A stretch of 64,000 nucleotides of DNA from Bacillota bacterium (GTDB lineage: Bacteria > Bacillota > Clostridia > Lachnospirales > Lachnospiraceae): assembly GCA_023386315.1 (NCBI GenBank), contig JAEWJZ010000028.1:62001-126000 (forward strand), in the 5' to 3' direction. The notes beneath the pieces were generated by a model. That model did not search any database. It saw only the letters and a program-made list of their open reading frames with translations, and had not been told where the DNA came from. Below, in pieces: positions 7,142 through 62,178 of this stretch. Each line of letters starts with the position of its first letter. The stretch's first letter is position 1. The position numbers were made by a program, and so were the translations under genes.

Positions 7142-7170
7142 TTGACACATTCCTCTTTCTGCATTAATAT
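7142..7170 (+). promoter_or_regulatory. sigma-A promoter of the cysK leader transcript
   Basis: TTGACA (7142-7147), 17-base spacer, TAATAT (7165-7170). This places transcription start near 7177, about 290 bases before cysK and about 50 before the Cys-rich leader ORF. Confidence 0.7.
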
Positions 7171-7225
7171 ATTTATAACATATAAACATATTAATGTTGT
7201 AGGTAGAAAAAGGGGGCAGCTCAAT

Positions 7226-7330: not shown

Positions 7331-7334
7331 TAAT

Positions 7335-7428
7335 GCCTTGCAGCATCAGGCGTGAGGATATCAATATATCCCTCGAAAGATGAAAGCAGGTGCCGAAAGA
7401 GCAGCTGCTTCTTTTCAATTTTAAAACA
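7335..7428 (+). promoter_or_regulatory. candidate attenuator hairpins of cysK
   Basis: After the leader peptide stop there are three potential stems: GCCT..AGGC (about 7334-7350), GAGGATAT caat ATATCCCTC (about 7353-7374) and AAGCAG..CTGCTT followed by CTTTTC (about 7385-7417). The last resembles a weak terminator. Which stems exclude each other when a ribosome stalls at the Cys codons cannot be decided without folding. Confidence 0.4.
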
Positions 7429-7464
7429 ATGATAGTGAATAATGACAATATGGAGGATAAGGAT

Positions 7465-8397: not shown

Positions 8398-8423
8398 AAT
8401 ATAATAAGTTACCATGTTTAAAA

Positions 8424-8465
8424 AACGGCTGGTTATAAGATATTCTTATTGCCAGTTGTTTTTTG
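8424..8465 (+). terminator. rho-independent terminator after cysK
   Basis: Stem ACGGCTGG-ATAAG / CTTAT-CCAGTTGT with loop ATATT, then TTTTTTG. Confidence 0.75.
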
Positions 8466-8547
8466 TGGATATTAACTATATAATAAACACAAAATGTAAT
8501 TTAATAGACAGGAATCAGTGACAAAATAATTCCAGGCAGGTGATTGA

Positions 8548-9690: not shown

Positions 9691-9724
9691 AGCAGTTTAA
9701 TTCAAAAAACAGGAGAAAAGAAAT

Positions 9725-10561: not shown

Positions 10562-10575
10562 GATCAATCCGGAGA

Positions 10576-12446: not shown

Positions 12447-13438
12447 TCCACTATTTTTTCATCCTTTCGATAGTCTCTGTCTGCGCAGGTGCCAAGTATC
12501 TGGGGAAGCTTCATGGGAGATATCCCGGGAGAGCAGCGTTTGGCACAGAGATTTTCCATGGTAAAGGGTTCACCCATCTGAATATCTCTTGCAGCTATCA
12601 GAAACTTTCTAACGTGATCCCGGTTTTTAAGTTCTTCACCAGCAGGAGCTTTTATCCCGCTTCCCATAGCCTTTTCGATATTTCTTATACTGTCAACCAT
12701 ACACTTGAATTCATCCGGCTCCAGGCTCATCCGGTGATCCGGCCCAGGCATGGTTTTATCAAGAGACATATGCTTTTCAATGACGCAGGCTCCAAGGGCA
12801 GCAGCAGCCACAGCCACCTCAATTCCGGCAGTGTGGTCAGAATACCCTGTCTTTTTGTGAAATGCTTCTCTCATGGTAAGCATGGCGTTTAAATTAACAT
12901 CCTCCAGGGGAGTGGGGTAAATACTGGAGCAGTGCAGAAGAGTAATATCCTGTCCGCCTGTATCAAGAAGATTCAGTGCTTCCCCGATTTCTTCCGGAGA
13001 GGACATTCCTGTGGACAGGATAACTGGCTTTTTTAATTCTGCCGCTTTTTTTAAATAGCAGTAGTTTGTAATCTCACCTGATGGAATCTTAATTATCTCC
13101 ATCCCCAGGCTGACTAAATACTCCATGCTTTCTTCATCAAAGGGGGAGGAGAGAAACTGGATACCACGAAAGGCACAGTACTGAGAGAGAACCTTAAAAT
13201 CCTTCCAGGACAGTTCCAGATCCTTTAACATCTCGTATTGGGAGTTATTATTTCCTGTATTGAGAGACTGATATTCTGCCTTTTTCGCGCTGGGGGCAGC
13301 CAGAAGTTCTGCGCGGAAGGTCTGGAATTTGACCGCATCTGCGCCTGCGGCCCATGCAGCATCAACTAACTGTCTGGCAATATTTAAATCTCCATTATGA
13401 TTTACCCCTGCTTCCGCGATTATCATAATCTTATTCAT
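12443..13438 (-). CDS. nonulosonic acid synthase (NeuB/LegI type)
   Basis: A 331-residue synthase condensing a six-carbon amino sugar with phosphoenolpyruvate. The TIM barrel shows IIAEAGVNHNGDL, DAVKFQTFR, IPSGEITNYCYL, LSTGMSS, LHCSSIYPTP, GYSDHTAGIEVAVAA, EKHMSLDK, followed by a C-terminal SAF domain (residues ~275-331, 'FLIAARDIQMGEPF'). It overlaps genes on both sides. The family includes sialic, legionaminic and pseudaminic acid synthases; the adjacent LegB/LegC/LegX-type genes favour legionaminic acid. Confidence 0.9.
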   Translation of the reverse strand: MNKIMIIAEAGVNHNGDLNIARQLVDAAWAAGADAVKFQTFRAELLAAPSAKKAEYQSLNTGNNNSQYEMLKDLELSWKDFKVLSQYCAFRGIQFLSSPFDEESMEYLVSLGMEIIKIPSGEITNYCYLKKAAELKKPVILSTGMSSPEEIGEALNLLDTGGQDITLLHCSSIYPTPLEDVNLNAMLTMREAFHKKTGYSDHTAGIEVAVAAAALGACVIEKHMSLDKTMPGPDHRMSLEPDEFKCMVDSIRNIEKAMGSGIKAPAGEELKNRDHVRKFLIAARDIQMGEPFTMENLCAKRCSPGISPMKLPQILGTCADRDYRKDEKIVE

Positions 13439-14078
13439 AACGACCTACCTCCCTTGCAGGGCTTCCATAAGCCAGCCTGTTTGAAGAAATATCAGACAGA
13501 ACCAGGCTCCCTGCTCCGATCATGGAATTGCTCCCTATGGTTCTGTTCTGGATCACAGTGCTTCCTGCGCCGATATGGGTATTATTTCCGATTTTTGAAT
13601 TTCCGCAGAGAATGCAGCCGGGGGCTGCGTGAACAAAACTGCCGATAACACAGCCGTGTTCCACGACCGCTCCGCTGTTAATAATGCAGCCGTCTCCCAG
13701 AGTGACTCCCGGACCTATGGAAGTTCCTCTTCCGATAAAAATCCCGTCCCCCATAAGAAGATTACCAGATAATGCAGAACTTTTATCAATGATGCACGGC
13801 ATATGAAAACCAATGGCTTTACATTCTTCAAAGAGCCGGATTCTCGTCTGGGGATTTCCAACGCTTCCGATTGCAATTGCGGCATACTTAACTCCTCTCC
13901 GGTAAATATCGGGCAGCAGCTCGTCAGACCCTAGCACCATGATGCCGGAGACAGTTATGCCCCGGCTTTTACTGCTGTCAAGGATGCCCATGATCTGGAA
14001 TTCCTCTTTTGAATGAATGGTATCAATCACACTTTCTGCATGACCGCCTCCTCCCAGGAGGATTAGCTTTTTTTTCAT
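13431..14078 (-). CDS. NeuD/PglD-type sugar O/N-acetyltransferase
   Basis: A 215-residue protein with an N-terminal Rossmann-like segment (LILLGGGGHAESVID) and a C-terminal left-handed beta-helix of hexapeptide repeats (residues ~95-205, e.g. IGPGVTLGDG, IGNNTHIGAG). This is the NeuD/PglD/LegH architecture, acetyl-CoA dependent. In a legionaminic route it would acetylate the 4-amino group made by the aminotransferase; O-acetylation of the final sugar is the alternative. Overlaps both neighbours by a few bases. Confidence 0.85.
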   Translation of the reverse strand: MKKKLILLGGGGHAESVIDTIHSKEEFQIMGILDSSKSRGITVSGIMVLGSDELLPDIYRRGVKYAAIAIGSVGNPQTRIRLFEECKAIGFHMPCIIDKSSALSGNLLMGDGIFIGRGTSIGPGVTLGDGCIINSGAVVEHGCVIGSFVHAAPGCILCGNSKIGNNTHIGAGSTVIQNRTIGSNSMIGAGSLVLSDISSNRLAYGSPAREVGRYE

Positions 14079-15121
14079 AGTTTCATTCTCTCAGCCATCT
14101 TTCTCATTTCACTGAACTCTCCCATATCAAGCCATGTGCTGTCCATAACCGGGTATGCACCCACTTTTTCTCTATTTTTCATGCACAGGCGGATTAAATC
14201 AGGCATATCAAACGGCAAATCCCGGGGAATATACTTTAATATATCTTTCTCCAGAACATAAAGCCCCGTGCTGACCAGAAATTCATACTTTGGTTTCTCA
14301 CTCAAGGAATGAATACAGCCGTTTTCATCTAAGGTGATCACACCGTATGGAATCTCGTAATTTTTCATGGCAGTCACAACCGTGATCTGATTCCTGTTTT
14401 TCTTATGATAAAGAAGAAGTTTTGTATAATTTACATCAACCAGGATATCACAGTTACTGACAAAAAAGCTTCCGGTGATCTGGTCTTTTAAAAGAGTCAG
14501 GGAACCTGCGGTTCCAAGCGGTTCCTTCTCATCAACAAAGTGAAGGTCATAGCGCCGGTCTCCGTTAAAATATGCTTTAATCAGTTCTTTTCTGTAATTA
14601 ACAGTTAAATAGAACTCTGTGAATCCATAGGAGATCATCTGATTCATGATCCGTTCCACAATCGGGGTATCGCCGATGGGAATTAATGGTTTTGGGATGA
14701 TCTTTGTATAAGGGTAAAGCCTGGAACCTTTCCCGCCTGCCATGATCACTACCGGAGTTTTCTTTTTTCTTAAAACCCGTTTTTTATCCGGCTCCAGCTC
14801 ATTCCAGAAGACAATATCAAGGACCTGGCCGTCATCATTTACGATGGGTAGACTTTCTATCTGCTTTTCCTTCATTATTTTCAACGCTTCTCGGACTTCC
14901 CCCTCTTTTATGACAATGGGGGAGGGGTTCATAATATGGTGCACCGGCATTGCCAGATCTTTATTTTGCAGAATCCATCGACGGATATCTCCGTCTGTAA
15001 TGACGCCTGCCAGCTTCCCGTCATTTACAACCATCAGTATTTTTTTTGCAGTCTCATCCAGCTGCCGGATTGCATCTCTGATTGGAAGGTCCGGTGCAAC
15101 AAAGAATTTTTCCACGTTCAA
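14075..15121 (-). CDS. CBS-domain nucleotidyltransferase (LegX/PtmE type)
   Basis: A 348-residue protein with two N-terminal CBS motifs (residues ~1-120) and a sugar-nucleotide transferase domain (from ~125: IMAGGKGSRLYPYTKIIPKPLIPIG). In Campylobacter the homologue PtmE makes GDP-glucosamine, the entry to the GDP-based legionaminic pathway. A TTG start at 15121 is chosen because AAGGAGGG precedes it by 7-8 bases; the longer ATG frame would read through that site. Overlaps the acetyltransferase gene (ATGA). The CBS pair suggests adenylate-responsive control, as inference. Confidence 0.85.
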   Translation of the reverse strand: MNVEKFFVAPDLPIRDAIRQLDETAKKILMVVNDGKLAGVITDGDIRRWILQNKDLAMPVHHIMNPSPIVIKEGEVREALKIMKEKQIESLPIVNDDGQVLDIVFWNELEPDKKRVLRKKKTPVVIMAGGKGSRLYPYTKIIPKPLIPIGDTPIVERIMNQMISYGFTEFYLTVNYRKELIKAYFNGDRRYDLHFVDEKEPLGTAGSLTLLKDQITGSFFVSNCDILVDVNYTKLLLYHKKNRNQITVVTAMKNYEIPYGVITLDENGCIHSLSEKPKYEFLVSTGLYVLEKDILKYIPRDLPFDMPDLIRLCMKNREKVGAYPVMDSTWLDMGEFSEMRKMAERMKL

Positions 15122-15142
15122 GCCAATCCCTCCTTCCATATG

Positions 15143-16291
15143 TCAGCTTTTCTTTAAAGCCTCTATCACAAAATCCATGTCAGCCTCGGATAAGTTAACG
15201 CTGCAGGGCAGGTTTATAATGCTGCTTTGATAGAAGGGCGCTTTTTCTATAAAATAGGTCTGGCAGTTCTGATACATGGTCTGGGTGTGGTTTAATTTCC
15301 AGATGGGTCTGGTCTCGATTCCGGCTTCTTTCAGCTGTCTGATAAGAGAATCTCTTTTTCCCGTTTTGCTTCTTAAAAGAAGAGAGTAGAACCAGTGATT
15401 ATTCCTGGCTTTTTCGTTAAAGGGCATAAGTGCGGCATCCTGAATTGTCTTCAGCCCTTCCCTGTAATAATTATAATTTTGTATCTTGATGCGGATATAA
15501 TCTTCCAGACATTCTAACTGCCCCACTCCGAGAGCGGCCTGCACATTGGTCATCCGGTAATTGTAACCAATGTGATTGTGGACATAGACAAGAGGATCAT
15601 CCTTTGCCTGGGCAGCCAGATAGGTGCATTTCTCCACGTCTGCAGCATTTTTTGCAGTCACCATTCCACCGCCGCCGGTTGTGATGATTTTATTGCCGTT
15701 AAAGGAATAAGCTCCGAAATCACCCATGGTACCCGCAAATTTCCCCTGATATATCCCATCTTTATATCTCGTTCCAAGCGCTTCCGTAGCATCTTCAATC
15801 AGCTTTAAGCCATACTCATCAGCCAGCCGGACAAGGGTTTCCATGTCTGCCATGTTTCCAAAGATATGAACGGCTATGATTGCCCTGATAATACGTTTTG
15901 ATTTATTATTTCTAAGGCCCAGAGTACTCTTCGTACATTCCTTTTTTAAGAAATCTTCCAGTTTTCTGCAGTCAATATTCAGGGAATCGCCACAATCCAT
16001 GAAAACAGGTTCTGCACCCAGATATTTTACTGGATTCACCGCTGCAATAAAAGTCAGGGCGGGAACGATCACTTCCTGGCCTGGTTTTACACCGGAAAGA
16101 AGCAAAGACAGGTGGAGAGCAGCCGTGCCGCTTTGAACCGCAGCCGTTTTTTCCACCTTTAAATAATCAGCCATTTCATTTTCAAATCTGGTCACATAAC
16201 TGCCCGAAGCAGAGACCCAGCCGCTTGAAATTGCTTCATCTGCATATTTTCTTTCATTGCCTTTTATAACAGGCACAGATAGGGGAATCAT
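15143..16291 (-). CDS. LegC-type PLP aminotransferase (DegT/DnrJ/EryC1 family)
   Basis: A 382-residue sugar aminotransferase. Visible motifs are VQSGTAALHLSLLLSG, EVIVPALTFIAAVNPVKYLGA, LIEDATEALGT and the PLP lysine in FNGNKIITTGGGGM. It would aminate the 4-keto sugar made by the downstream dehydratase. Sequence style (MIPLSVPVIKGNE start, AEPVFMDC) matches the LegC/PseC-like branch. It lies 23 bases after the dehydratase gene and 22 before the nucleotidyltransferase. Confidence 0.88.
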   Translation of the reverse strand: MIPLSVPVIKGNERKYADEAISSGWVSASGSYVTRFENEMADYLKVEKTAAVQSGTAALHLSLLLSGVKPGQEVIVPALTFIAAVNPVKYLGAEPVFMDCGDSLNIDCRKLEDFLKKECTKSTLGLRNNKSKRIIRAIIAVHIFGNMADMETLVRLADEYGLKLIEDATEALGTRYKDGIYQGKFAGTMGDFGAYSFNGNKIITTGGGGMVTAKNAADVEKCTYLAAQAKDDPLVYVHNHIGYNYRMTNVQAALGVGQLECLEDYIRIKIQNYNYYREGLKTIQDAALMPFNEKARNNHWFYSLLLRSKTGKRDSLIRQLKEAGIETRPIWKLNHTQTMYQNCQTYFIEKAPFYQSSIINLPCSVNLSEADMDFVIEALKKS

Positions 16292-16313
16292 GGGGCGCCT
16301 CCTGCCGTTTTTG

Positions 16314-17294
16314 TCAAATATTATACCGGTCCGTCCGATAGCGGTTCAAATTGTTTTCCATCCAGAGAATGGTTTCTTTAAGGCCCTGTGATAACGTATA
16401 TTGCTGCTTCCAGGAGGTTAAGGCTTTCAGCTTTTCATTTGATCCCAGAAGTCTTGTCACTTCGCTTTTTTCCGGACGCAGTCTCTCGTTTTCGCAAATG
16501 ATTTCTGCCTTTGGATTAATCTGACGGATCAGTTCTAAAGCAAGTTCGCCGATAGAAATTTCGGTTCCGCTGGCAATATTAATTTCCTCGCCTACGGTTT
16601 GTTCAGACGCCTCGATTTCAATAAAGCCATTGACGGTGTCTTTCACATAATTAAAATCTCTGGTCGGGATGAGGCTTCCCAGATGGATGTCTTCCTTACC
16701 CGCCAGGAGCTGACTGATGATGGTTGGAATGACTGCCCTTGCTGACTGCCTTGGACCATAGGTATTAAACGGCCGGACAATTGCAACAGGAAGAGAAAAA
16801 CTCCTGTAAAATGATTCCGCCAGGCGGTCTGCGCCTATTTTCGTGGCAGAATAAGGGGACTGGGCTTTAAACGGATGGGATTCATCAATGGGAACGTAGT
16901 CGGCACTTCCGTAGACTTCTGAAGTGGAGGTAATTAATACTTTGCCTGTTTCTAAGGCTCTTGCAGCCTGAAGGATATTTAAAGTCCCTTTCACATTGGT
17001 ATCAACATAAGAATCGGGAGATACATAACTGTATGGAATGGCAATCAGTGCTGCTAAATGAAAGATGGAATCTATACCGGCGGCAGCAGTTCTTACCCCA
17101 TTGGGGTCTCTGATGTCTCCGCTTTGTAATTCGATTTCTTGCTTTATGTGTTCCGGAAGAGTATCAAGCCAGCCAAAGGTACCAAAAGAGTTATAATAGA
17201 CAAATGCTCTCACCTGATATCCGCGCCTGACAAGCTCCTCTGTCAGATGGCTGCCGATAAAGCCGTCAGCTCCTGTGACCAATACCTTTTTCAT
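16314..17294 (-). CDS. LegB-type NAD-dependent sugar-nucleotide 4,6-dehydratase
   Basis: A 326-residue extended SDR with GADGFIGSHL near the N-terminus, TSTSEVYG with the catalytic Thr/Ser region and YSATK (YxxxK). The family removes water from GDP- or UDP-N-acetylglucosamine to give the 4-keto-6-deoxy sugar; context points to LegB. Its start overlaps the stop of the small upstream gene (ATGA), coupling the sugar genes to the small-protein genes. Signal-free and cytosolic. Confidence 0.87.
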   Translation of the reverse strand: MKKVLVTGADGFIGSHLTEELVRRGYQVRAFVYYNSFGTFGWLDTLPEHIKQEIELQSGDIRDPNGVRTAAAGIDSIFHLAALIAIPYSYVSPDSYVDTNVKGTLNILQAARALETGKVLITSTSEVYGSADYVPIDESHPFKAQSPYSATKIGADRLAESFYRSFSLPVAIVRPFNTYGPRQSARAVIPTIISQLLAGKEDIHLGSLIPTRDFNYVKDTVNGFIEIEASEQTVGEEINIASGTEISIGELALELIRQINPKAEIICENERLRPEKSEVTRLLGSNEKLKALTSWKQQYTLSQGLKETILWMENNLNRYRTDRYNI

Positions 17295-53970: not shown

Positions 53971-55305
53971 ATGAATTCAATATGGACGGAAACAGCCCGC
54001 ATACCGGGAAGAAATCCTCTGCCTGGAAACAGGCGGACAGAAGTGGTGGTGATCGGGGCAGGAATGGCAGGGATATTAACTGCCTTTTATTTACAGAGGC
54101 ATGGTGTTCATGTGATGGTACTGGAGGCAGACCGGATCGGAAGCGGTCAGACTGGATTTACCACAGCAAAGATCACGTCCCAGCATAATCTGATTTATGG
54201 AAAACTGGTAAAAACAGTGGGGGAAGAGACTGCAAGACTTTACGGAAGAGCCAATCAGCTGGCAGTAGAGGAGTATGGAAAGCTGATCAGACGTTATGGC
54301 ATTGATTGTCATTATGAAGAAACAGATGCCTATCTTTATTCTGTACAGGAATCAGAAAAGCTCTTAAAAGAAGCGGAATGCGCAAAACGGCTTGGCCTTC
54401 CGGCATCATTTGTAAGAGAAACCAGTCTTCCTTTTCCAGTTTTTGGAGCAGTCCGGTTTACAGGACAGGCACAGTTTCATCCTCTGGAATTTTTAAGAGA
54501 TATTTCCTCAGGACTTCCAATTTATGAACGGACCAGAGTTTTGAAGGTACAGGGACACGAAGTCGTGACTGACAGAGGAGTGGTCAAAGCGGAAAAGGTT
54601 GTATTTGCAACTCATTATCCATTTATCAATGTTCCGGGATTTTATTTTGCAAAAATGTACCAGGAGAAAAGCTATGTAATGGAATTGGGTTCTGCTCCAT
54701 CGGTTCACGGAATGTATCTGGGAGTTGATTCCAAATCCTATTCCTTCCGGAATGCAGGAGACAAGCTGCTTATGGGATATGGAAGCCACAGAACCGGAAG
54801 TATTCCAAAGGAAAATCCATATATGGTCATGAAGCAGACAGCAAAGCATCTGTTCCCCGGGGCAGAGGAAGTTAAAAAATGGTCTGCCCAGGACTGCATG
54901 ACTCTTGATGGAATCCCCTATATAGGAACTTATTCCGTTTTCAAGCCTGACTGGTATGTGGCGACAGGATTCGGCAAATGGGGCATGAGCACTTCCATGG
55001 CTGCAGCAAAAATACTCAGCATGCAGATTCTGGGTAAGAAAACTCCTTTTGATGAGGTTTTTACGCCCCGGAGGCATCACATCAGGGCTGGAGCAGGTAC
55101 GCTGGTTTCTCATAGCCTTAAGTCTGTAAAGGGACTTTCCGGCGGAGTTTTAAAAGGCGCCGTTAACTGTCCTCATATGGGCTGCCGTTTAGTCTGGAAC
55201 CGGCATGACAAGCGCTGGGAATGTCCATGTCATGGATCTTCTTTTGAAATAAACGGAAAAATATCTTCTAATCCTGCACAACAGAGTATTCCATTCATAG
55301 ATTGA
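53971..55305 (+). CDS. FAD-dependent oxidoreductase with C-terminal Rieske domain
   Basis: A 444-residue protein. The N-terminus holds a DAO-type FAD fold (VVVIGAGMAGILTAFYLQRHG, VLEADRIGSGQTGFTTAKIT), followed by a C-terminal Rieske [2Fe-2S] domain with CPHMGCRL...CPCHGS at ~398-422 (two Cys-His pairs). This fusion is common in Firmicutes and its substrate is unknown. It ends 40 bases before cotJA, suggesting an operon and a possible role in the spore coat or mother cell (inference). Confidence 0.85.
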   Translation: MNSIWTETARIPGRNPLPGNRRTEVVVIGAGMAGILTAFYLQRHGVHVMVLEADRIGSGQTGFTTAKITSQHNLIYGKLVKTVGEETARLYGRANQLAVEEYGKLIRRYGIDCHYEETDAYLYSVQESEKLLKEAECAKRLGLPASFVRETSLPFPVFGAVRFTGQAQFHPLEFLRDISSGLPIYERTRVLKVQGHEVVTDRGVVKAEKVVFATHYPFINVPGFYFAKMYQEKSYVMELGSAPSVHGMYLGVDSKSYSFRNAGDKLLMGYGSHRTGSIPKENPYMVMKQTAKHLFPGAEEVKKWSAQDCMTLDGIPYIGTYSVFKPDWYVATGFGKWGMSTSMAAAKILSMQILGKKTPFDEVFTPRRHHIRAGAGTLVSHSLKSVKGLSGGVLKGAVNCPHMGCRLVWNRHDKRWECPCHGSSFEINGKISSNPAQQSIPFID

Positions 55306-55345
55306 TATTAGAAACTTTTCAAGTATGAAAGGAGTCAAACATCCT

Positions 55346-56488
55346 ATGGATGGTAATACGAAACAACGGTGTTCCGGCTGGTCTTCCCCGATGGAACTTG
55401 ATATGTCCGTGTGTCCGGGTACAGTGATTCGTCCGGATATGCCTCTGGGTTCCGGTCCTGCAAAGAACTTACAAAACCCGTCAGCACCGATTCCAATGAC
55501 ACAGCAGGATTTATCCAGATGTCCCTCTTACTATGGATCCATGAAATGCCCGGATAAACACTGCCCGGAGCCCGTAAAATGTCCGGAGAGGGCGGCTGCT
55601 TCCGCGCCAATGAAATGTCCGGAAAAACCGGTATGCCAGATGCCGGTAAAATGTCCTCAGCAGGGCGTTTCTCCTGCGATGATGAAATGTCCGGAGATGC
55701 CTCCCAAGCCAATGAAATGCCCGGAACAGGCAGTCTCTCCTGCAGTAATGAAATGTCCGGAGATGCCTCCCAAGCCGATGAAATGTCCGGAACAGGCAGT
55801 CTCCCCTGCAGTAATGAGATACCCGGAGATGCCTCCGTGCCGAATGAAATGCCCGGAACAGGCAGTTTCCCCCGCAGTAATGAGACGTCCTGAGATGCCT
55901 CCCAAGCCGATGAAATGTCCGGAACAGGCAGTCTCTCCCGCAGTAATGAGATACCCGGAGATGCCCCCGTGCCGAATGAAATGTCCGGAACAGGCAGTCT
56001 CTCCCGCAGTAATGAAATGCCCGGAGATGCCTCATAAGCCAATGAAATGCCCGGAGCACGCAGTCTCTCCTGCAGTAATGAGATGTCCGGAGATGCCTCA
56101 TAAGCCAATGAAATGCCCGGAGCAGGCGGTCTCCCCCGCAGTAATGAAATGCCCGGAGATGCTTCATAAGCCAATGAAATGTCCGGAACAGGCAGTCTCT
56201 CCTGCAGTAATGAGATACCCGGATATGCCTCCATGCCCGAGAATGTATCCGGATATGCCCCCATGCTGCATGAAACCGAATATGCCGATGGGTATGGCTC
56301 CCGGCATGTATACCGGTTCAAAGCCAGCTGAATGTTCAGGTGCTGAGAACATTGACCGGTATCCTGTTGCCATGGCCTATGTTCCATGGCAGAGATGGCA
56401 GGAACTTTATTCTGTAGATACAGCAATTGAAATGGGAACTATTTTCCCGGATTTATTTAAACCATTTTTGATGGGAGGGTGCAAGTGA
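55346..56488 (+). CDS. cotJA: CotJA-type spore coat protein with long Cys/Pro repeat region
   Basis: A 380-residue protein. The C-terminal ~65 residues (YPVAMAYVPWQRWQELY, AIEMGTIFPDLFKPF) are the CotJA domain, which is normally nearly the whole ~80-residue protein. Before it lie nine tandem 22-residue repeats (residues ~101-298) of the type MKCPEQAVSPAVMKCPEMPP, rich in Cys, Pro and Met, after a looser MKCPE-rich section. The ATG at 55346 follows AAAGGAG; an ATG at 55325 also exists. Cys density suggests disulfide cross-linking in the coat. Stop overlaps cotJB start. Confidence 0.85.
   Translation: MDGNTKQRCSGWSSPMELDMSVCPGTVIRPDMPLGSGPAKNLQNPSAPIPMTQQDLSRCPSYYGSMKCPDKHCPEPVKCPERAAASAPMKCPEKPVCQMPVKCPQQGVSPAMMKCPEMPPKPMKCPEQAVSPAVMKCPEMPPKPMKCPEQAVSPAVMRYPEMPPCRMKCPEQAVSPAVMRRPEMPPKPMKCPEQAVSPAVMRYPEMPPCRMKCPEQAVSPAVMKCPEMPHKPMKCPEHAVSPAVMRCPEMPHKPMKCPEQAVSPAVMKCPEMLHKPMKCPEQAVSPAVMRYPDMPPCPRMYPDMPPCCMKPNMPMGMAPGMYTGSKPAECSGAENIDRYPVAMAYVPWQRWQELYSVDTAIEMGTIFPDLFKPFLMGGCK
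55646..56239 (+). repeat. nine 66-bp tandem repeats inside cotJA
   Basis: Nine in-frame 66-bp units encode 22-residue repeats with a constant PEQAVSPAVM core and a variable end (KCPEMPPKP, RYPEMPPCR, RRPEMPPKP, KCPEMPHKP and so on). Units with RYPEMPPCR alternate with PPKP units, suggesting block duplication. Likely prone to copy-number change. Confidence 0.9.
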
Positions 56489-56754
56489 TGGCAAATTGTA
56501 ATGTTGATTGCGATATGTTATTAATGCAGATATTCCAGTCCTGTTTTGCAATGGACGATGTAATTCTGTATCTTGATACCCATCCATGTGATCAGGCTGC
56601 ATTGAATTATTATCATTATGTTGCAAATATGCGGGAACAGGCTGTGCATGCCTATGAGGAGTATTGTGGTCCGTTAATGTCAAATCATGTTATGGACGAA
56701 AATTACTGGTCCTGGGTAAATGATCCATGGCCATGGGAAGGAGTGTGCGGCTAA
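56488..56754 (+). CDS. cotJB: CotJB-type spore coat protein
   Basis: An 88-residue protein with the CotJB pattern: LLMQIFQSCFAMDDVILYLDTHPCDQAALNYYHYV near the N-terminus and a Trp-rich end (YWSWVNDPWPWEGVCG). The ATG at 56488 overlaps the cotJA stop (TGATG) and has GGGAGGG 7 bases upstream. Its stop overlaps the cotJC start (TAATG). Inner coat component together with CotJA and CotJC. Confidence 0.9.
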   Translation: MANCNVDCDMLLMQIFQSCFAMDDVILYLDTHPCDQAALNYYHYVANMREQAVHAYEEYCGPLMSNHVMDENYWSWVNDPWPWEGVCG

Positions 56755-56852
56755 TGTGGAGATATGAGAAACGGTTGCAGTATCCTGTAAATATTAAAAC
56801 ACCTAATCCCAAAATAGCTACCTTCATTATGAGTCAGTATGGCGGACCTTAA
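56754..56852 (+). pseudogene. cotJC: cotJC 5' part, interrupted by a recombinase element
   Basis: The ATG at 56754 overlaps the cotJB stop and opens MWRYEKRLQYPVNIKTPNPK, the N-terminus of the manganese-catalase-like coat protein CotJC. After Tyr29 and GGP the frame meets a TAA inside the element (56850-56852), leaving a 32-residue stub. The break falls at TGGCGGACC (56840-56848), in the codons for the conserved Q-Y-G-G motif. The rest of the gene continues at 59640. Read as a functional split gene rather than dead, because both halves are intact up to the repeat. Confidence 0.92.
56840..56848 (+). repeat. left attachment site core of the cotJC element
   Basis: TGGCGGACC, repeated exactly at 59639-59647 in direct orientation; one base further out AGTA versus AGTT also nearly agree (12 of 13). 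Recombination between the two removes 2,799 bp. The recombinase stop codon begins at 56851/56849, directly against this site. Confidence 0.88.
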
Positions 56853-58306
56853 GGCAAATGTATATAATAAATGAACTTCATTTCTCCGGATTTCTTATCA
56901 TAAATAATCTTTTTTACCACACTGCGCAGCGCCCTTCCTTTGGCTTCGCTGCTGACCGACTGATCTGTCAGTATATCGCAGACGCTGCTTATTCTGCACA
57001 AAGATACGTCCCTGCTGTGAGAGTCCACAGCGCTTTTTGAAGCCTCAATGGAATTCATCCTGATTTTCAACTCTGTTTCTGTCTTCTTTAAGCGTTCTTT
57101 TCCAGCGCGGTACTCTTCCAGGTCATCAATTCCGTTTTCATAAGCTGCTTTTATTTTACTTTTCCTGGCACGGAGCTTTTCCAGTGCTGATTCTAACTGC
57201 TGCTTTTCCAGATATTGATCAAATGCATCCCGTTTGGTGTATTCACACGTTCTGGCTTCAGCGGTGACCTGTTGTAAAGATTCAATAATGAGAGACTCCG
57301 CCTTTTTATCAGAAATACAGCAGGATTCCTTATGAAGCCCTTTTGCATAGCGCCAGCACTGAAAGTAGCCGGACTGATGTCCGGTTTTGCTTCCAGCATT
57401 ATATCCTAAGCTGGCTCCGCAATAGCCGCAGACTAAAAGTCCTGAAGCCCAATGCCTGCAGGCTGAGACTTCCCTGCGGTTTCTGGGTCTGTATTCCTGT
57501 TTCAGCCGCTGCTGGTTTGCCTTAAACACAGAAGTGACTTCCTTCCTTGTTTCATGAGAACCCTGAAACGAGATATTGTTCCAGGTAACGGTTCCTTCAT
57601 AGAATTTATTTTTTAATATCCGTTCCACCGATCTTCTGTCAAATGAATTGCCACGTTTGGTACAATATCCCTGATTGTTTGCCTCTTTTGCAATAGAAGC
57701 CAGATCCATCCCGTTGAAAAAAGACTGATGTATAAATATAACGGCTTCATATTCCTTTTCTTCTATAATAAAAGGTTTTCCTTCCCCCACTGCGCGGTAG
57801 CCAAGACAGGGAGCGGCCTGATAGCCGTTTCTCAGCGCTTTTTCCGTCATTCCCCGTGTGACTTCCCCGGATAAGTTAATGGAATAGTATTCGTCAAACC
57901 ATTCAATGATACTTTCGATCAGTCGTCCGAACATGCCTTCCATGATCGGTTCTGAAACACTTTTTATAGTGATTCCGCATTTCTTTCGAAGTACGCTTTT
58001 GTAAAACATGCTTTCTTCCTGATTTCGTGCAAAACGTGAAAATTTCCATAAATAGAGATATTGAAAAGGACATGGATGTGTTTTTGCAATGGAAATCATC
58101 CGCTGAAACTCTTTTCGGTTATCAGCCCGGCGTCCGCTGATACCTTTTTCTTCTATAAAAATGTACTCGTCAGGGATCAGTACGCCATCAGCACCTGCTG
58201 AATTTTTAATCTCCCGAAGCTGTGCAGCAGGAGAAAGTTCAGTCTGATCGTTTGTGCTAACCCGGACATAAGCTGCGCCAATGGGCTTTTTTACATTTTT
58301 AACCAA
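56849..58306 (-). CDS. large serine recombinase (SpoIVCA-like size) of the cotJC element
   Basis: A 485-residue serine integrase. TTG start at 58306 with AAGAAGGGA 7 bases upstream; a longer frame to 58360 has no site. Catalytic Ser17 in AAYVRVSTNDQ, then the resolvase domain to ~155 (FIEEKGISGRRADNRKEFQRM, WKFSRFARN), a recombinase DNA-binding domain (~165-265), a zinc ribbon (CGYCG...C..CC around 300-345) and a coiled coil (~365-430). Size and layout match SpoIVCA, which excises skin from sigK. Its stop abuts the att core. Likely excises this element from cotJC during sporulation. Confidence 0.92.
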   Translation of the reverse strand: MVKNVKKPIGAAYVRVSTNDQTELSPAAQLREIKNSAGADGVLIPDEYIFIEEKGISGRRADNRKEFQRMISIAKTHPCPFQYLYLWKFSRFARNQEESMFYKSVLRKKCGITIKSVSEPIMEGMFGRLIESIIEWFDEYYSINLSGEVTRGMTEKALRNGYQAAPCLGYRAVGEGKPFIIEEKEYEAVIFIHQSFFNGMDLASIAKEANNQGYCTKRGNSFDRRSVERILKNKFYEGTVTWNNISFQGSHETRKEVTSVFKANQQRLKQEYRPRNRREVSACRHWASGLLVCGYCGASLGYNAGSKTGHQSGYFQCWRYAKGLHKESCCISDKKAESLIIESLQQVTAEARTCEYTKRDAFDQYLEKQQLESALEKLRARKSKIKAAYENGIDDLEEYRAGKERLKKTETELKIRMNSIEASKSAVDSHSRDVSLCRISSVCDILTDQSVSSEAKGRALRSVVKKIIYDKKSGEMKFIYYIHLP

Positions 58307-58341
58307 TGAGTTCCCTTCTTTCCGATAATTAAAAGAGAAGA

Positions 58342-58357
58342 TACCTGGAAACAGGTA
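58342..58357. promoter_or_regulatory. operator-like palindrome between divergent element genes
   Basis: TACCTG-GAAA-CAGGTA, a perfect 6-bp-arm dyad between the recombinase and the 65-residue ORF; a likely regulator site for both. Confidence 0.45.
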
Positions 58358-58369
58358 CAATCTGTGTCA

Positions 58370-58377
58370 CATACATT
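58370..58377 (+). promoter_or_regulatory. sigma-E-like -10 element
   Basis: CATACATT equals the sigma-E -10 consensus CATACAHT, about 23 bases before the 65-residue ORF. The -35 region (GGAAACA) is poor. Confidence 0.35.
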
Positions 58378-58399
58378 TTACAGGGAAGGAGATGGAAAT

Positions 58400-58597
58400 A
58401 TGAGTAAAAACATTCAGATTGAAAATTACATAGATTTTAACGGGGAAATGATTTTATTTGATATTCTGCCGGAGGAGAAGCAAAAGCAAGCTGGTGAAAG
58501 GATCCGGGATCTGATAATGGAGCATGCTGGCTACGATTTAATAAGGACATCAGAAAAAAGCCGGCCATCTGTATCGATGACCGGGCCATTCGTTTAG
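58400..58597 (+). CDS. 65-residue hypothetical protein of the cotJC element
   Basis: Starts MSKNIQIENYIDFNGEMILF behind AAGGAGATG and continues DILPEEKQKQAGERIRDLIMEHAGYDLI, a mixed acidic/helical small protein, ending with a less ordered RTSEKSRPSVSMTGPFV tail. No family recognised. Divergent from the recombinase and sharing its control region, it is a candidate recombination directionality factor, by analogy with SprB; that is inference only. The final ~15 codons may be frame-shifted sequence. Confidence 0.6.
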   Translation: MSKNIQIENYIDFNGEMILFDILPEEKQKQAGERIRDLIMEHAGYDLIRTSEKSRPSVSMTGPFV

Positions 58598-58616
58598 CCG
58601 GGGCTGAGCAGGCAGC

Positions 58617-59282
58617 TCAGGAACTGGCATCTTCTTTGCATCCTTCAAAAGGAAAGAAAAATTCCGGAATACCGGAGGCATATGGAGCAATATCGTACTG
58701 CTGGTAGTAGATGACAAGGTCGCAGGGCTTTAAGAAAAAGGCGTTCATATCAAAGTTCCCCCGGATCAGATGGGAATAATCGTCAAAGTAGGAGGCAGGA
58801 GCATCTTTCATGCGAGCTGTGATTTCATTTTCAATCACCTGAAAGATGGTATTATTTAGTGTTTTCACGTCAGGGAAAAAATCTGTCAGATGAAGCTGAT
58901 TCCCTGTCTGGAAGTCCCAGGTCTGAGACTGTCTCAGTGTATTACCGTGGGCTCCGCCCAAATAAGAATATTGGTCGATATAGAGGCTTGTAATGCAATC
59001 CTCGTTATATGTCACCACATAATCAGACAAGAATTCATAGCTGTGAAAGGGAAAATCATTGTCTTTTGCATACATGGCATTTTCAACAGCCTGAGGGTAT
59101 AAAATCTCACGACAGTATTTTTCTGCCTGCTGGGACTGTATCTCATAGAACTGGCTGATGGCGAGGGCAGTATCAGAACTGCAGGTTGATGTAAAAGAAG
59201 GATAATGAATGGTATAGGTAAGTACAGGTACGTTGTTATGAAGGAGGACATCTGACTTCGTTTTCTTATAGATTGTCTGCAT
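58617..59282 (-). CDS. DUF3298/RsiV-like protein
   Basis: A 221-residue protein without signal peptide: PVLTYTIHYPSF, then a central helical QFYEIQSQQAEKYCREILYPQA, and the DUF3298-type core GGAHGNTLRQSQTWDFQTGNQLHLTDFFPD ... LVIYYQQYDIAPYASGIPEFFFPF. DUF3298 occurs at the C-terminus of RsiV anti-sigma factors and in lysozyme-binding proteins. Its presence as cargo in a recombinase element is unexpected. Alternatively it was the original neighbour captured with the element. Confidence 0.8.
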   Translation of the reverse strand: MQTIYKKTKSDVLLHNNVPVLTYTIHYPSFTSTCSSDTALAISQFYEIQSQQAEKYCREILYPQAVENAMYAKDNDFPFHSYEFLSDYVVTYNEDCITSLYIDQYSYLGGAHGNTLRQSQTWDFQTGNQLHLTDFFPDVKTLNNTIFQVIENEITARMKDAPASYFDDYSHLIRGNFDMNAFFLKPCDLVIYYQQYDIAPYASGIPEFFFPFEGCKEDASS

Positions 59283-59369
59283 GTGAACCTCAGGAAAGAA
59301 AGCTTTTTATATTATATGAATACTCAGCTTCTTTATTGCGGGAAAATGAACGAATCAGGGATATGATAT

Positions 59370-59399
59370 GTATATTCAAAGCTGTTTATACCATACTAT
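59370..59399 (+). promoter_or_regulatory. sigma-E-like promoter in the cotJC element
   Basis: GTATATT (59370-59376), 15-base spacer, CATACTAT (59392-59399): 7 of 8 at the -10 and a good ATATT -35 for the mother-cell sigma factor E. It would start transcription just at the ribosome binding site of the 53-residue ORF, which is tight. Confidence 0.45.
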
Positions 59400-59415
59400 C
59401 TTTGAGGTGAACAAT

Positions 59416-59577
59416 ATGAAAAACAATAAAAAAGATAATTACAGCTCCAGTGCAAAGGAAGATAACAAAAAGCCTGAAACGTTTCAGGATCACTGGGAGA
59501 CAGGGAAATTCTTAGGTCCCAATACTTTGAGACATGAAGAAAGCATTAAAGTGTATGAAGATAAGGAAGAGGAGTGA
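59416..59577 (+). CDS. 53-residue acidic protein at the right end of the element
   Basis: Starts MKNNKKDNYSSSAKEDNKKP at the ATG at 59416, with TTTGAGGTG 7 bases upstream, and continues ETFQDHWETGKFLGPNTLRHEES. Highly polar with no hydrophobic core; no family recognised. It could be a recombination factor, a small spore protein, or a passenger. It ends 62 bases before the right att core. Confidence 0.6.
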   Translation: MKNNKKDNYSSSAKEDNKKPETFQDHWETGKFLGPNTLRHEESIKVYEDKEEE

Positions 59578-59638
59578 TAAAACACTTCTTTTCCTTATTT
59601 GCGGCATTAAGTGAATAAAATAATCTGTTTTTGAAGTT

Positions 59639-59647
59639 TGGCGGACC
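59639..59647 (+). repeat. right attachment site core of the cotJC element
   Basis: TGGCGGACC, identical to and in the same orientation as 56840-56848. Direct orientation predicts excision, not inversion. Confidence 0.88.
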
Positions 59648-60161
59648 AGATGGAGAAATGGGCGCTTCCATGCGTTATCTTTCCCAGCGATATGCTATGC
59701 CATATAAGGAAGGAAAGGCGGTATTAACTGACATTGGAACGGAAGAACTGGCCCATCTTGAAATCGTGGCAACCATTGTTCATCAACTGACCAGAAACTT
59801 AACTCCGGAGCAGGTTGTAGAATCAGGGTTTGGTCCTTATTATATTGACCATACCACAGGTATCTGGCCTCAGGCAGCGGGCGGAGTTCCTTTTAATGCA
59901 TGTGAATTCCAGTCCAAAGGTGACCCAATCACCGACCTTGTAGAGGATATGGCAGCAGAACAAAAAGCCAGGAGTACTTACGACAACATTTTGCGTGTTA
60001 TCACGGACCCTGATGTCTGTGATCCCATCCGGTTCTTACGGATGCGTGAAATAGTTCATTTCCAGAGATTCGGTGAAGCACTTAGAATCACCCAGGATAA
60101 TCTGGACAGCAAAAACTTTTATGCATTTAATCCCAGCTTTGATGTCAAAACAAAATGTTAA
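59640..60161 (+). pseudogene. cotJC: cotJC 3' part (residues 30-202 of the joined protein)
   Basis: From GGC at 59640 the frame reads GGPDGEMGASMRYLSQRY and runs to a normal stop, 173 residues. Manganese-catalase ligand positions are all here: Glu35 (joined numbering), Glu65 and His68 in TEELAHLE, a Glu in DMAAEQKARSTY and Glu/His in REIVHFQRF. An open frame extends back to a TTG at 59631 but has no ribosome binding site, so this half is silent until joined to 56754-56840. Terminator downstream. Confidence 0.92.
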
Positions 60162-60187
60162 CAGGGGTAATTTTTATACAGACATAA

Positions 60188-60230
60188 TAAAAAAGGCGTT
60201 GATTCACTTCTCGTGGATCAGCGCTTTTTT
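60188..60230 (+). terminator. terminator of the cotJ operon
   Basis: AAAAAGGCGTTGAT / ATCAGCGCTTTTTT stem with G-T pairs, T-run. Confidence 0.8.
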
Positions 60231-60301
60231 AGATAACAAATTAATGTGCACAAAAGGATTATTGCTATTTTTTAATAGCCTCCTTATTTAGTGTAAACGG
60301 G

Positions 60302-60439
60302 GCTATGTGTCAGTCACAGCTGATTGAAAATTCCGGGAAGATCTATGCCGTGGACGCTGATGATAAGATGATAACGGAGCCAGTGACGCTCACGCCGGAT
60401 CAGGATGGGACGCTGCAGTATCCTGGATTAGTGAAATAG
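60302..60439 (+). pseudogene. C-terminal remnant of a wall-binding-repeat-like protein
   Basis: An open frame without a start reads SQLIENSGKIYAVDADDKMI, continues TEPVTLTPDQDGTLQYPGLVK and stops at 60439. The 'GKiYxxDaDgKM' phrase resembles the end of cell-wall/choline-binding repeats. Nothing upstream in frame, so a fragment. The remaining gap to 60660 is AT-rich with no gene seen. Confidence 0.4.
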
Positions 60440-60675
60440 TGCTGAATTTGTTTGGTAAGGTTACCAATTGTTTGGATTGACATAAGATGATAATATAAAT
60501 GCATTCTATATCATAAATGAAAAAGCTGAAATCCCAGAATACTATAATCGATTATAATAAAAATTTACAAGTCATTTGTTACATTCAGATGGCTTTCTTT
60601 TCTGTACTTTATTTATTGATTTAGAATATTTATAACAACAATAATTACAAAAGATAAACTTTGGAGGTACATTGT

Positions 60676-62178
60676 ATGAGTAAGAGAGCATTGCTAAGAT
60701 TGGCAACGAGTATTTGTTTTATGCTTTGTGTACTGTTTTTTGGACAGATTACTGTTTTTGCTGAAGATAGTAAACCATTACATGAGTATAAATTTGACGG
60801 AGAAAGTGATATAACGGTTATTGATACAGGAACGCAAAGGCAAATTGGAACCTCATATGGTGAAAACCGTGATAAGTTTTATACTGGCTATAATGGTATA
60901 GGTAGGTCAAGGTTTTTTAATGGAAATGATGATTATATAGCTTTGGGAAATTATTATTTACATGCAGGAGCAAAATCTATTAGATTTAAGTTCAAAAAAG
61001 ATACTTTACCAGCTTCTAATAAAGCTGAGCATATTATAAGAACCTCTGGTGATAATTATAATTATGGATATTTTATTGGTATAGGTTCTGATATCCTAAA
61101 TCAAACAATAGGCAATTATGGCTTTTCATCAACACCTGGTAGTCTTTATATTTCACATGTTACTGGAGAACGTCAAATGAACTTTGAAATTCAGACACCA
61201 GAAAATGTATGTGATGGACAGTGGCATGATGCTTTATTTACATGGGATGGTACAATGGAAGTTAATTCAATCAAGCTGTATTTAGATGATATGCAGACTC
61301 CTGTGGCTCAGACAACACCTAAATATAATTCCGAAAGAAGTGGAGCGCCCGCAACTATTGGTAAAGGATATCAGGGTTATTTAGACGATATCCAAATTTA
61401 CAATGCTGTAATAATACCAGATGTATCAACTCCTGTTACACCATTGAACTTAAAAGCTACAGCCGGGAAATCTAAAATAGATCTAACTTGGGAAGCAGTA
61501 GAAAAAGCAGCAAGTTACACTGTTAAACGTGCCACAACTACAGGAGGTCCATACACAGCAATTGCAGCGGATCTAACTAATACCTCTTATACAGATACTG
61601 ATGTAAAAAACGGAACTACCTATTATTATATTGTAAGTGCCATAAATACAGGCGCTGAAATAGGAAATTCAAACGAAGCTTCTGCACAGCCTACTGAGTC
61701 TCAAACGCCCCCTATAATCGACTCTAAATTAAAAGTGGTATTAGAGGTATCTGAATCACTCCGATTAAGCGTAGATGATGATCTAAATGTCAATGCACAA
61801 ATGTCCTGGTCTTCTTCAGATCCAACGGTTGCAACAGTAAATGAAAAGGGAATCGTAACAGCTCTGACCCCTGGTAATACTATTATAACAGTAAAGAGTG
61901 TGGACGGCTCCTATACAGATTACATAAACGTATTAGTTGTAGAGAATGCAGACGATTACAGACTTGCAATTGATTTAAAAATTGGAGAAACAGCCAGATT
62001 GACAGCAGATGATTTTACTAACACAGCTAATATTACATGGGCTCCGATGGATTCATCAATAGCAAATGTAACCAGTAAAGGAAAAGTCACAGCACTGAGC
62101 AAAGGATTGGTTTTAATTAGTGCAAAAGATGCAGAAGGAAACATCATTGGCCGTGTTTATGTAAGAGTTAGGGAATAA
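60676..62178 (+). CDS. secreted LamG/FN3/Ig-like multidomain protein
   Basis: A 500-residue exported protein. The signal peptide (residues 1-~31) ends near VFAED. A LamG/concanavalin-like domain (~35-250: EYKFDGESDITVIDTG, WHDALFTWDG, LYLDDMQTPVAQ, YQGYLDDIQIYN) is followed by FN3 (~258-340, VTPLNLKATAGKSKIDLTWEAVEKA) and two bacterial Ig-like (Big_2) domains (~350-500, SSDPTVATVNEKGIVTALTPG). No anchor is visible, so secreted or wall-associated; likely carbohydrate or surface binding. Start at 60676 behind GGAGG. Markedly AT-rich against the neighbouring housekeeping genes. Confidence 0.85.
   Translation: MSKRALLRLATSICFMLCVLFFGQITVFAEDSKPLHEYKFDGESDITVIDTGTQRQIGTSYGENRDKFYTGYNGIGRSRFFNGNDDYIALGNYYLHAGAKSIRFKFKKDTLPASNKAEHIIRTSGDNYNYGYFIGIGSDILNQTIGNYGFSSTPGSLYISHVTGERQMNFEIQTPENVCDGQWHDALFTWDGTMEVNSIKLYLDDMQTPVAQTTPKYNSERSGAPATIGKGYQGYLDDIQIYNAVIIPDVSTPVTPLNLKATAGKSKIDLTWEAVEKAASYTVKRATTTGGPYTAIAADLTNTSYTDTDVKNGTTYYYIVSAINTGAEIGNSNEASAQPTESQTPPIIDSKLKVVLEVSESLRLSVDDDLNVNAQMSWSSSDPTVATVNEKGIVTALTPGNTIITVKSVDGSYTDYINVLVVENADDYRLAIDLKIGETARLTADDFTNTANITWAPMDSSIANVTSKGKVTALSKGLVLISAKDAEGNIIGRVYVRVRE

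What the first reader, a model, noticed from the sequence alone, without database searches (positions are those of the whole stretch)
56754..60161. cotJC split by a 2.8-kb serine-recombinase element: a skin-like switch in a spore coat catalase gene
Seen directly: cotJB is followed by the first 29 codons of cotJC, then a 2,799-bp insert, then the remaining 173 codons. A 9-bp direct repeat (TGGCGGACC) lies exactly at both junctions, and joining at the repeat restores ...QYGGPDGEMGASMRYL, the normal CotJC sequence, with no lost or extra base. Known: in Bacillus the sigK gene (skin, SpoIVCA) and spsM (SPbeta, SprA) are restored by serine-recombinase excision in the mother cell. Inference: here the same logic controls a manganese-catalase-like coat protein, with one of the smallest possible elements. 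Excision would be terminal and harmless because the mother cell dies.
Basis: partly seen in the sequence, partly recalled or inferred. Interest (0 to 1): 0.95.

Follow-up and report, generated by a model that had tools for sequence, protein, structure and literature searches.

The report
Excisable insert splitting spore-coat gene cotJC
In most of the Lacrimispora genomes examined, a bacterial spore-coat gene is cut in two by a small DNA element carrying its own recombinase gene, which is predicted to cut the element out precisely in the dying mother cell and so restore the gene; similar splits recur across the family at four points of this gene and in at least one other spore gene.

Summary
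cotJC is split after codon 29 by 2,799 bp, with TGGCGGACC at both junctions (56840-56848, 59639-59647); joining gives an open 202-codon CotJC. The element encodes a large serine recombinase, a 65-aa acidic protein (candidate directionality factor), an RsiV-like protein and a 53-aa ORF; no phage structural gene was recognised. It is not a one-off: the insert is seen or implied at the same codon in 18 of 25 Lacrimispora genomes, with both gene halves and the recombinase under purifying selection. Five genomes have the site empty; in two of these an intact cotJC is followed by relics of the element and a decayed 3' half. In 17 of 17 elements tested the reconstructed attP is a dyad centred on the GG of Gly31, and one genome carries that attP junction. 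Across Lachnospiraceae CotJC is split at four points, each near a metal-ligand motif, sometimes twice in one gene; related recombinases also split a SleC-type gene. A sigmaE-like -10 box precedes the candidate directionality factor. Excision itself is not shown. The skin-like interpretation is supported: an unusually widespread, domesticated variant of known sporulation-gene intervening elements. The paper searches showed no report of cotJC as a target.

The parts
55325..56488 (+). cotJA, with an unusually long KCPE-repeat-rich N-terminal region
   Evidence: Pfam CotJA PF11007 at residues 347-381
56488..56754 (+). cotJB
   Evidence: Pfam CotJB PF12652
56754..56852 (+). cotJC 5' piece (32 codons and TAA; 29 codons before the Gly-Gly-Pro repeat)
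56840..56848 (+). left junction repeat TGGCGGACC; predicted crossover at GG 56844-56845 (Gly31 codon)
56849..58306 (-). large serine recombinase (485 aa, TTG start assumed)
   Evidence: Pfam Resolvase, Recombinase, Zn_ribbon_recom above cut-off; PHROG 95 integrase; serine motif kept in 17 of 17
58349..58377 (+). conserved promoter-like block AAACAGGTACAATCTGTGTCACATACATT: sigmaE-type -10 CATACATT with ACAR motifs upstream
58400..58597 (+). ORF65, 65-aa acidic protein, candidate recombination directionality factor
   Evidence: family member found in 49 of 79 loci of this recombinase clade; no Pfam match above cut-off, no convincing PDB match; two strands and a helix predicted
58617..59282 (-). 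RsiV-like cargo protein (PdaC + DUF3298 domains)
   Evidence: Pfam
59416..59577 (+). ORF53, small conserved cargo protein
   Evidence: dN/dS 0.04-0.13 against the window where dS could be estimated
59639..59647 (+). right junction repeat TGGCGGACC; predicted crossover at GG 59643-59644
59640..60161 (+). cotJC 3' piece (173 codons)
   Evidence: Pfam Mn_catalase PF05067

Best explanation
[quoted passage not shown] The small acidic protein ORF65 likely acts as the recombination directionality factor, and a sigmaE-type (probably SpoIIID-assisted) promoter in front of it likely confines excision to the mother cell; both are inferred from conservation. Comparison indicates that the element is old and mostly vertically inherited in Lacrimispora, so it behaves as a domesticated remnant of an integrating element rather than a recent invader.
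For: Same-site insert in the window and 15 Lacrimispora relatives; joined at the GG, all 16 read through the junction, 13 of them to 202-203 aa, while the other 3 stop at 72-76 aa at a second insert. attP dyad centred on the same GG in 17 of 17 elements, some of them near-identical; summed symmetry 214 there against 118 or less at the 17 other centres tried. attP junction present in G002. Purifying selection against the window, where dS could be estimated: cotJC halves dN/dS 0-0.07, recombinase 0.066-0.147. 17 of 17 recombinases open with the serine motif. Recombinase and host-gene distances correlate (Mantel r 0.77, p 1e-4, 16 taxa). In G008 and G012, where cotJC is whole, the old 3' half is decayed. 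CATACA in 16 of 16 upstream regions; GTACAA-N8-10-CATA upstream of 16 of 42 non-Lacrimispora ORF65-like genes against 46 of 30,000 random stretches. The recombinase clade sits beside truncated sporulation-type genes in 67 of 79 loci.
Against: No excision has been observed. No full-length protein more than 91% identical to the joined product at full coverage is among the 120 hits listed of 1,503. An attP pattern was found in 0 viral contigs and a looser one in only 1 of 25 genus genomes. No clear sigmaE -35 box was recognised. ORF65 has no detectable relation to a solved directionality factor, and no ORF65 relative was detected in 30 of 79 loci. An intact CotJC paralog makes the restored protein possibly dispensable.
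Confidence: 0.82

Rival explanations
1. A selfish integrative element uses cotJC as a safe harbour and excises by its own rules (stress, transfer), with no programmed developmental timing; the gene is restored only incidentally.
For: Recombinases of the same clade beside cotJ pieces occur on IMG/VR contigs of up to 41 kb; G009 carries a divergent, apparently independent element; a large insert exists at the second site in G011 (about 41 kb between the pieces).
Against: Mostly vertical inheritance, no phage structural gene recognised in the window's element, purifying selection on the gene to be restored, and a conserved sigmaE-like block before the candidate directionality factor, also in some elements with a different recombinase.
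Confidence: 0.12
2. The split cotJC is a dead gene: the element is stuck and the intact paralog has taken over.
For: An intact paralog (68-70% identity) is present in 24 of 25 genomes.
Against: Against the window the split 3' half has dN/dS 0.011-0.066, no higher than the flanking gene (0.048-0.101); the intact orthologs give 0.031-0.032 where dS could be estimated. Recombinases are open in 17 of 17. Where the 3' half is redundant, in G008 and G012, it has decayed.
Confidence: 0.03
3. Heritable on/off phase variation: excision and reintegration in growing cells gives a mixed population.
For: Empty sites exist in 5 of 25 genomes; an attP junction is assembled in G002.
Against: Empty sites fall in two clusters of relatives, G007/G015/G016 and G008/G012, not scattered (G008 was left out of the tree and its kinship to G012 rests); two L. 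xylanisolvens strains both keep the insert.
Confidence: 0.03

Closest known systems
skin element in sigK (B. subtilis, C. difficile)
   Same: serine recombinase element inside a mother-cell sporulation gene, precise frame restoration; in C. difficile a small acidic directionality factor, CD1234, under sigmaE and SpoIIID (PMC5025042, passages read)
   Different: target is a structural coat gene, not a sigma factor; 2.8 kb with four ORFs instead of 19 genes (C. difficile skin); kept across a genus
SPbeta in spsM with SprA/SprB
   Same: restores a spore-envelope gene (PMC4191935, passages read); SPbeta integrase YokA is the best PDB match of the recombinase profile
   Different: SPbeta is an active prophage; the ORF65 profile does not match the PDB chains fused to YotN (equated with SprB from recall) at E 5 or better
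gin in gerE (B. cereus ATCC10987)
   Same: non-phage element, 9-bp repeat at the junction, recombinase GirC plus factor GirX (PMC5595907, passages read)
   Different: 28.6 kb with three recombinases
yin in yabG (C. botulinum V73)
   Same: serine recombinase element in a sporulation gene of a clostridium (PMC10747680, passages read)
   Different: prophage-like and reported as unique to one strain, whereas this one is genus-wide
vfbin in spoVFB and vrin in spoVR
   Same: intervening elements in mother-cell genes (mentioned in PMC4191935, passages read)
   Different: described there as carrying phage-related genes; other targets

Membership tests
Sporulation-gene intervening elements | Insertion inside the coding region of a mother-cell sporulation gene | tested here: met
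   cotJC, Pfam PF05067 in a cotJA-cotJB-cotJC row; mother-cell expression of cotJ is recalled from B. subtilis, not tested
Sporulation-gene intervening elements | Short direct repeat at both ends; joining restores the frame | tested here: met
   9-bp repeat, 202 codons, no stop
Sporulation-gene intervening elements | Element encodes an intact large serine recombinase | tested here: met
Sporulation-gene intervening elements | Directionality factor under mother-cell control | tested here: inconclusive
   ORF65 and its conserved upstream block are candidates only
Sporulation-gene intervening elements | Excision and circle formation during sporulation | not testable with these tools
   only an indirect trace: attP junction in G002
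skin (sigK) element | Interrupts sigK | tested here: not met
   interrupts cotJC
Prophage | Phage structural genes in the element | tested here: not met
   of the four ORFs only the recombinase has PHROG matches
Large serine recombinases | Resolvase, Recombinase and zinc-ribbon domains | tested here: met
   PF00239, PF07508, PF13408 above cut-off
Self-splicing introns | Intron RNA family in the insert | tested here: not met
   no Rfam match at gathering score in 55300-60700

The most novel reading that the evidence does not exclude
In Lachnospiraceae, late mother-cell genes are genes in pieces at the DNA level: several different branches of large serine recombinases have converged on cotJC, at each of its four metal-ligand motifs, and one branch also on SleC-type, CwlD-like and PdaB-like genes. 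They share a sigmaE/SpoIIID-type promoter in front of a small acidic directionality factor, so a mother cell must carry out one, two or more programmed excisions to assemble its coat and cortex genes. The Lacrimispora element is a domesticated, host-maintained form of this system.
Probability: 0.6. Interest if true: 0.93.

Novelty: new variant of a known kind. Interest (0 to 1): 0.87.

Why it matters
Sporulation-specific rearrangements have been described case by case (sigK, spsM, spoVFB, spoVR, gerE, yabG). Here one gene, cotJC, appears cut in 39 of the 104 family genomes that have it, one genome per genus (my reading), sometimes at two points, and a 2.8-kb version has been kept under selection through most of a genus. 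That makes it possible to ask, by comparison and in tractable anaerobes, why cells keep such inserts, how excision is confined to a doomed cell, and how a phage-type integrase becomes host property. It also adds a candidate directionality-factor family and many recombinase/att pairs, and warns annotators that split cotJC and sleC genes in Clostridia are likely not pseudogenes.

Tried and rejected
Assembly artefact: rejected, since the same split is in many independent assemblies, including genomes held as one contig. Intron: no Rfam match. Dead gene: rejected by selection and by the decayed 3' half in G008 and G012. ORF65 as a known directionality factor: Pfam DUF5720 only at E 0.14, best of 23 weak PDB sequence matches E 0.012 to an adenylate kinase, taken as chance, no fold match at E 0.001; its model has mean pLDDT 79 but pTM 0.48. 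Excised circle in viral contigs: 0 matches. Full-length natural allele of this lineage: none above 91% identity at full coverage in the 120 listed. A clear sigmaE -35 box was not recognised; the sigmaE -10 and SpoIIID (WWRRACARNY) consensus are recalled, and a paper search for them returned no paper.

Weak points of my own tests. The repeat finder gave no usable repeat for L022/L037, L024/L025/L100, L042, L043, L091, L116, L117 and L121, because alignment ends or gaps shifted the register; L022, L024, L042, L043, L091, L116, L117 and L121 were printed and read by eye, L025 is covered, and at the second-site junctions of L116 and L117 only 2-3 bases are shared. My strict promoter pattern with the SpoIIID core matched only 3 of 42 non-Lacrimispora upstream regions; the GTACAA-N8-10-CATA pattern was chosen after looking at those regions, so its enrichment is descriptive. 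In one search that loose pattern had 14 matches in the window and 20 loci; only 6 have ACAA or ACAG directly before it, and none was found in L118, L119 and L121-L124, which hold other second- or third-site elements in whole or part. The 32-codon 5' piece reaches dN/dS 0.12 in two pairs not involving the window, and an intact pair (G015/G007) gives 0.14 for the 3' part at very low divergence. The CwlD-like and PdaB-like queries and three of the four SleC-type queries were cut from loci that are themselves among the 79, so these score themselves.

Counts that I made by reading listings: occupancy in 25 Lacrimispora genomes and break points in 160 family genomes (whose listing ends 'more matches are not listed' and leaves out 36 genomes without a match). 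Rows G079, G121, G076, G176 and G180 were left out of the split count as ambiguous. Only 5 of the 39 (G171, G144, G028, G152, G123) were checked with both pieces in one fetched stretch.
Full report
What is there. The window holds cotJA (55325-56488), cotJB (56488-56754) and a cotJC cut in two: 56754-56852 and 59640-60161. TGGCGGACC stands at both junctions, 2,799 bp apart; joining restores a 202-codon Mn-catalase-family protein with no stop. In the integrated state the 5' frame ends at TAA directly after Gly-Gly-Pro. The insert encodes, from left to right, a 485-aa large serine recombinase (minus strand), ORF65 (plus), an RsiV-like protein (minus) and ORF53 (plus). Rfam finds no intron or other RNA family at gathering score, and of the four ORFs only the recombinase has a PHROG match.

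Whose genome. The window's own assembly is not held. The nearest held genome is G001, whose contig length and place agree with a Lacrimispora amygdalina PI-S10-A1B record, so the window is a Lacrimispora (Lachnospiraceae).

Genus-wide conservation. Recombinase relatives (E 0.001 or better, distant ones included) were found in 38 of 61 genomes. Flanks of 20 places were fetched. In 15 Lacrimispora relatives the recombinase lies between the 5' and 3' pieces of cotJC (L013-L025, L027, L028). L026 (G022) is a short contig with the element alone, and in G020 and G021 the pieces break at or near contig ends in the matching place. My count is 18 of 25 occupied, 5 empty at this codon (G007, G008, G012, G015, G016) and 2 (G006, G019) with no cotJC of this type found. 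Joined at the GG, the window and 15 relatives all read through the junction; 13 of 16 give 202-203 aa, and L014, L018 and L028 stop at 72-76 aa because a second insert follows. Insert sizes are 2,470-3,413 bp, except 5,058 bp in G009 and 6,498 bp in G002, where two copies lie in tandem. The five empty sites read CAGTAYGGYGGNCCNGATGGAGA in an open frame.

The crossover point. Reconstructed attP sites (right end of the element joined to its left end) were tested for dyad symmetry about 18 centres. In 17 of 17 (window, 15 Lacrimispora relatives and Blautia parvula L073) the best centre is the GG of the Gly31 codon; summed symmetry is 214 there and at most 118 elsewhere. Several of the 17 are close relatives, so they are not 17 independent cases. 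A crossover at GG explains why wobble positions on either side may differ between the two copies (L013, L020, L022); in L022 the left copy even reads Leu instead of Pro just after the GG, which excision would discard. G002 (L023; the Marseille-P2415 record) carries an array in which one element's right end is fused to another's left end exactly at this core, that is, an attP junction. A degenerate attP pattern finds it in 1 of 25 genus genomes and the reversed control in none. Such tandem copies can come from integration of a circle or from recombination between sister chromosomes; an assembly error around real circles is also possible, since an N lies nearby.

Selection. Pairwise against the window, where dS could be estimated, the 5' piece has dN/dS 0-0.014, the 3' piece 0.011-0.066, the recombinase 0.066-0.147 and the flanking oxidoreductase gene 0.048-0.101; many values rest on dS above 1 and others are saturated. 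In nine other pairs the 3' piece gives 0-0.136, the highest in an intact pair at very low divergence, and the 32-codon 5' piece up to 0.124. ORF65 evolves faster (0.18-0.62 against the window). All 17 recombinases examined are open with the VRVST/IRVST motif; one search had flagged single stops for G018, G022, G023 and G025, but none lies inside the residues aligned. Recombinase and host-gene distances correlate (Mantel r 0.77, p 0.0001, 16 taxa), and the two trees share most clades; G009 is the main exception, its recombinase and cargo being divergent, which suggests an independent insertion. G008 was left out of the host-gene tree because its gene is cut by the fetched stretch, and L026 because it lacks that gene.

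An internal control. G008 and G012 have an intact cotJC followed by an ORF65 homolog (frame-broken in G012), an RsiV-like gene, ORF53 and then, in G008, a 3' cotJC piece only 79% identical over 52 codons and cut short; in G012 only a weak trace of 12-18 codons remains. No recombinase of this family is found in either genome. So when the 3' half is not needed it decays, whereas in split genomes it does not.

The switch. ORF65 and the recombinase are divergent genes. In 16 aligned upstream regions the most conserved block is GAAACARGTACAATC..TGTCACATACATTTTA; CATACA is invariant. CATACA-T is the sigmaE -10 consensus (recalled), and AAACARGT fits the recalled SpoIIID core in 15 of 16, failing in the G012 relic. 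An iterated profile of ORF65 collects 75 ORFs in the loci held, many of them duplicates; 58 are distinct, 42 of them outside Lacrimispora. A member is found in 49 of the 79 loci; the other 30 have none detected. Upstream of the 42, GTACAA-N8-10-CATA occurs in 16, against 46 of 30,000 random stretches and 6 of 3,209 other small ORFs; a relaxed form occurs in 25 of 42 against 169 of 30,000 and 15 of 3,209. These genes share ancestry, so the numbers show conservation, not independent events. In C. difficile the directionality factor CD1234 is a 72-aa acidic protein under sigmaE and SpoIIID (PMC5025042, passages read), the same logic. ORF65 has no Pfam match above cut-off, no PHROG match and no convincing PDB match; 54 database relatives were found, named, where a name is given, only 'hypothetical protein'.

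Beyond the genus. cotJ pieces were found in 53 of 79 or, with other queries and cut-offs, 52 cotJ, 20 SleC-type, 1 CwlD-like, 1 PdaB-like and 5 none. A fragment of such a gene lies within 301 bp of the recombinase's 3' end in 67 of 79: cotJC 46, SleC-type 19, CwlD-like 1, PdaB-like 1. In 4 more a cotJC piece lies farther downstream, and in 8 none was found downstream. Pieces on both sides of the recombinase are held in 16 cotJ and 6 SleC-type loci. The SleC-type name rests on SpoIID-like and PG_binding_1 domains and on my recall of SleC; the CwlD-like and PdaB-like names rest on one locus each, with best NCBIfam matches below the whole-protein cut-off, as expected for fragments. In IMG/VR, 80 loci of the clade include 19 with cotJ, 8 with SleC-type and 3 with CwlD-like pieces and 50 with none.

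Four break points. Among 160 family genomes, one per genus, 104 have CotJC matches. Reading the listed matches, 39 have a copy cut near residue 32 (12), 57-72 (15), 132-138 (7) or 178 (5); some have a second cut, and some also have an intact copy. Exact frame-restoring repeats were found for the second site in L120 (12 bp), L122 (14 bp) and L123 (9 bp), for the third in L124 (8 bp) and for the fourth in L077 (14 bp) and L103 (9 bp). Aligned with solved Mn catalases (alignments shown for 6j42 and 4r42), the ligand residues, identified from recall, fall at E35, E65/H68, E136 and H169, so each break point lies within about seven codons of a metal-ligand motif; conserved DNA would make a stable integration target. 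Lacrimispora G009, G011 and G017 have cotJC in three pieces, and G016 is split only at the second site. The second-site element of G016 has its own, different serine recombinase (G016 has no match to the window's), and that of G144 (L121) another. The elements at the second site of G016, G009 and G156 carry the ACAAGTACAA...CATA block before a 50-57-aa ORF (the G156 recombinase was not examined), which hints at convergence on one mother-cell control; other second- and third-site elements fetched (L118, L119, L121-L124) do not show it.

Known or new. Searches of the paper library (also 64 and 68) returned sporulation-gene intervening elements, and the passages read name sigK, spsM, spoVFB, spoVR, gerE and yabG; none reported cotJC or sleC as a target in what I saw. 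Opened by passages only: PMC4191935, PMC5595907, PMC10747680, PMC5025042, PMC10083194, PMC8987985; the seven papers that hold the word cotJC were seen as listing only. The library lacks most subscription journals. I file this as a new variant of a known kind: same principle, new target gene, very small size, genus-wide vertical maintenance, multiple insertions per gene and a candidate shared control module.

Shown versus inferred. Shown: split, repeat, restored frame, genus-wide presence, empty sites, selection, attP dyad, one attP junction, family-wide recurrence. Inferred: that the recombinase excises the element, that ORF65 is its directionality factor, that sigmaE and SpoIIID time it, and that the restored protein matters despite the intact paralog.

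Noticed in passing
window 58555-58640: Read by eye, one frame here encodes PAICIDDRAIRLAGAE..., matching the end of a phosphatase-like ORF (PAICYIDDRAICFDGDASSLL) seen in G002 and, in similar form, G008; the window's element seems to have lost most of that gene, and ORF65 now runs into the remnant.
   Followed up: partly
window 58617-59282: RsiV-like cargo (PdaC + DUF3298 domains), present in 15 of the 16 Lacrimispora loci L013-L028 as well as the window (absent from L028); its role in the element is unknown.
   Followed up: no
L023 (G002) 6583-16940: Amplified array: three recombinase copies, two cotJA-cotJB-cotJC 5' ends and one 3' end, with an element-to-element junction.
   Followed up: partly
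L082, L085, L093, L096, L108, L110 and others: Related recombinases split a SpoIID-like/PG-binding (SleC-type) gene; pieces on both sides of the recombinase are held in 6 loci.
   Followed up: partly
L041, L057, L060-L062, L073 and others versus Lacrimispora: The recombinase gene is at the opposite end of the insert (next to the 3' half, parallel to cotJC) in 24 of the 46 cotJC loci, although the target GG is the same in L073; element orientation seems to have flipped more than once.
   Followed up: no
window 56849-58306: NCBIfam best matches of the recombinase are CcrB (E 1e-25) and the fdxN-element excision recombinase XisF (E 1e-15), both far below the curated cut-offs.
   Followed up: no
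window 55325-56488: CotJA has an unusual long N-terminal extension of KCPE/AVSPAVM repeats.
   Followed up: no
window 53971-55305: A DAO/Rieske oxidoreductase gene directly upstream of cotJA is kept at the locus in the 15 split and 5 empty-site Lacrimispora loci compared and might belong to the same operon.
   Followed up: no
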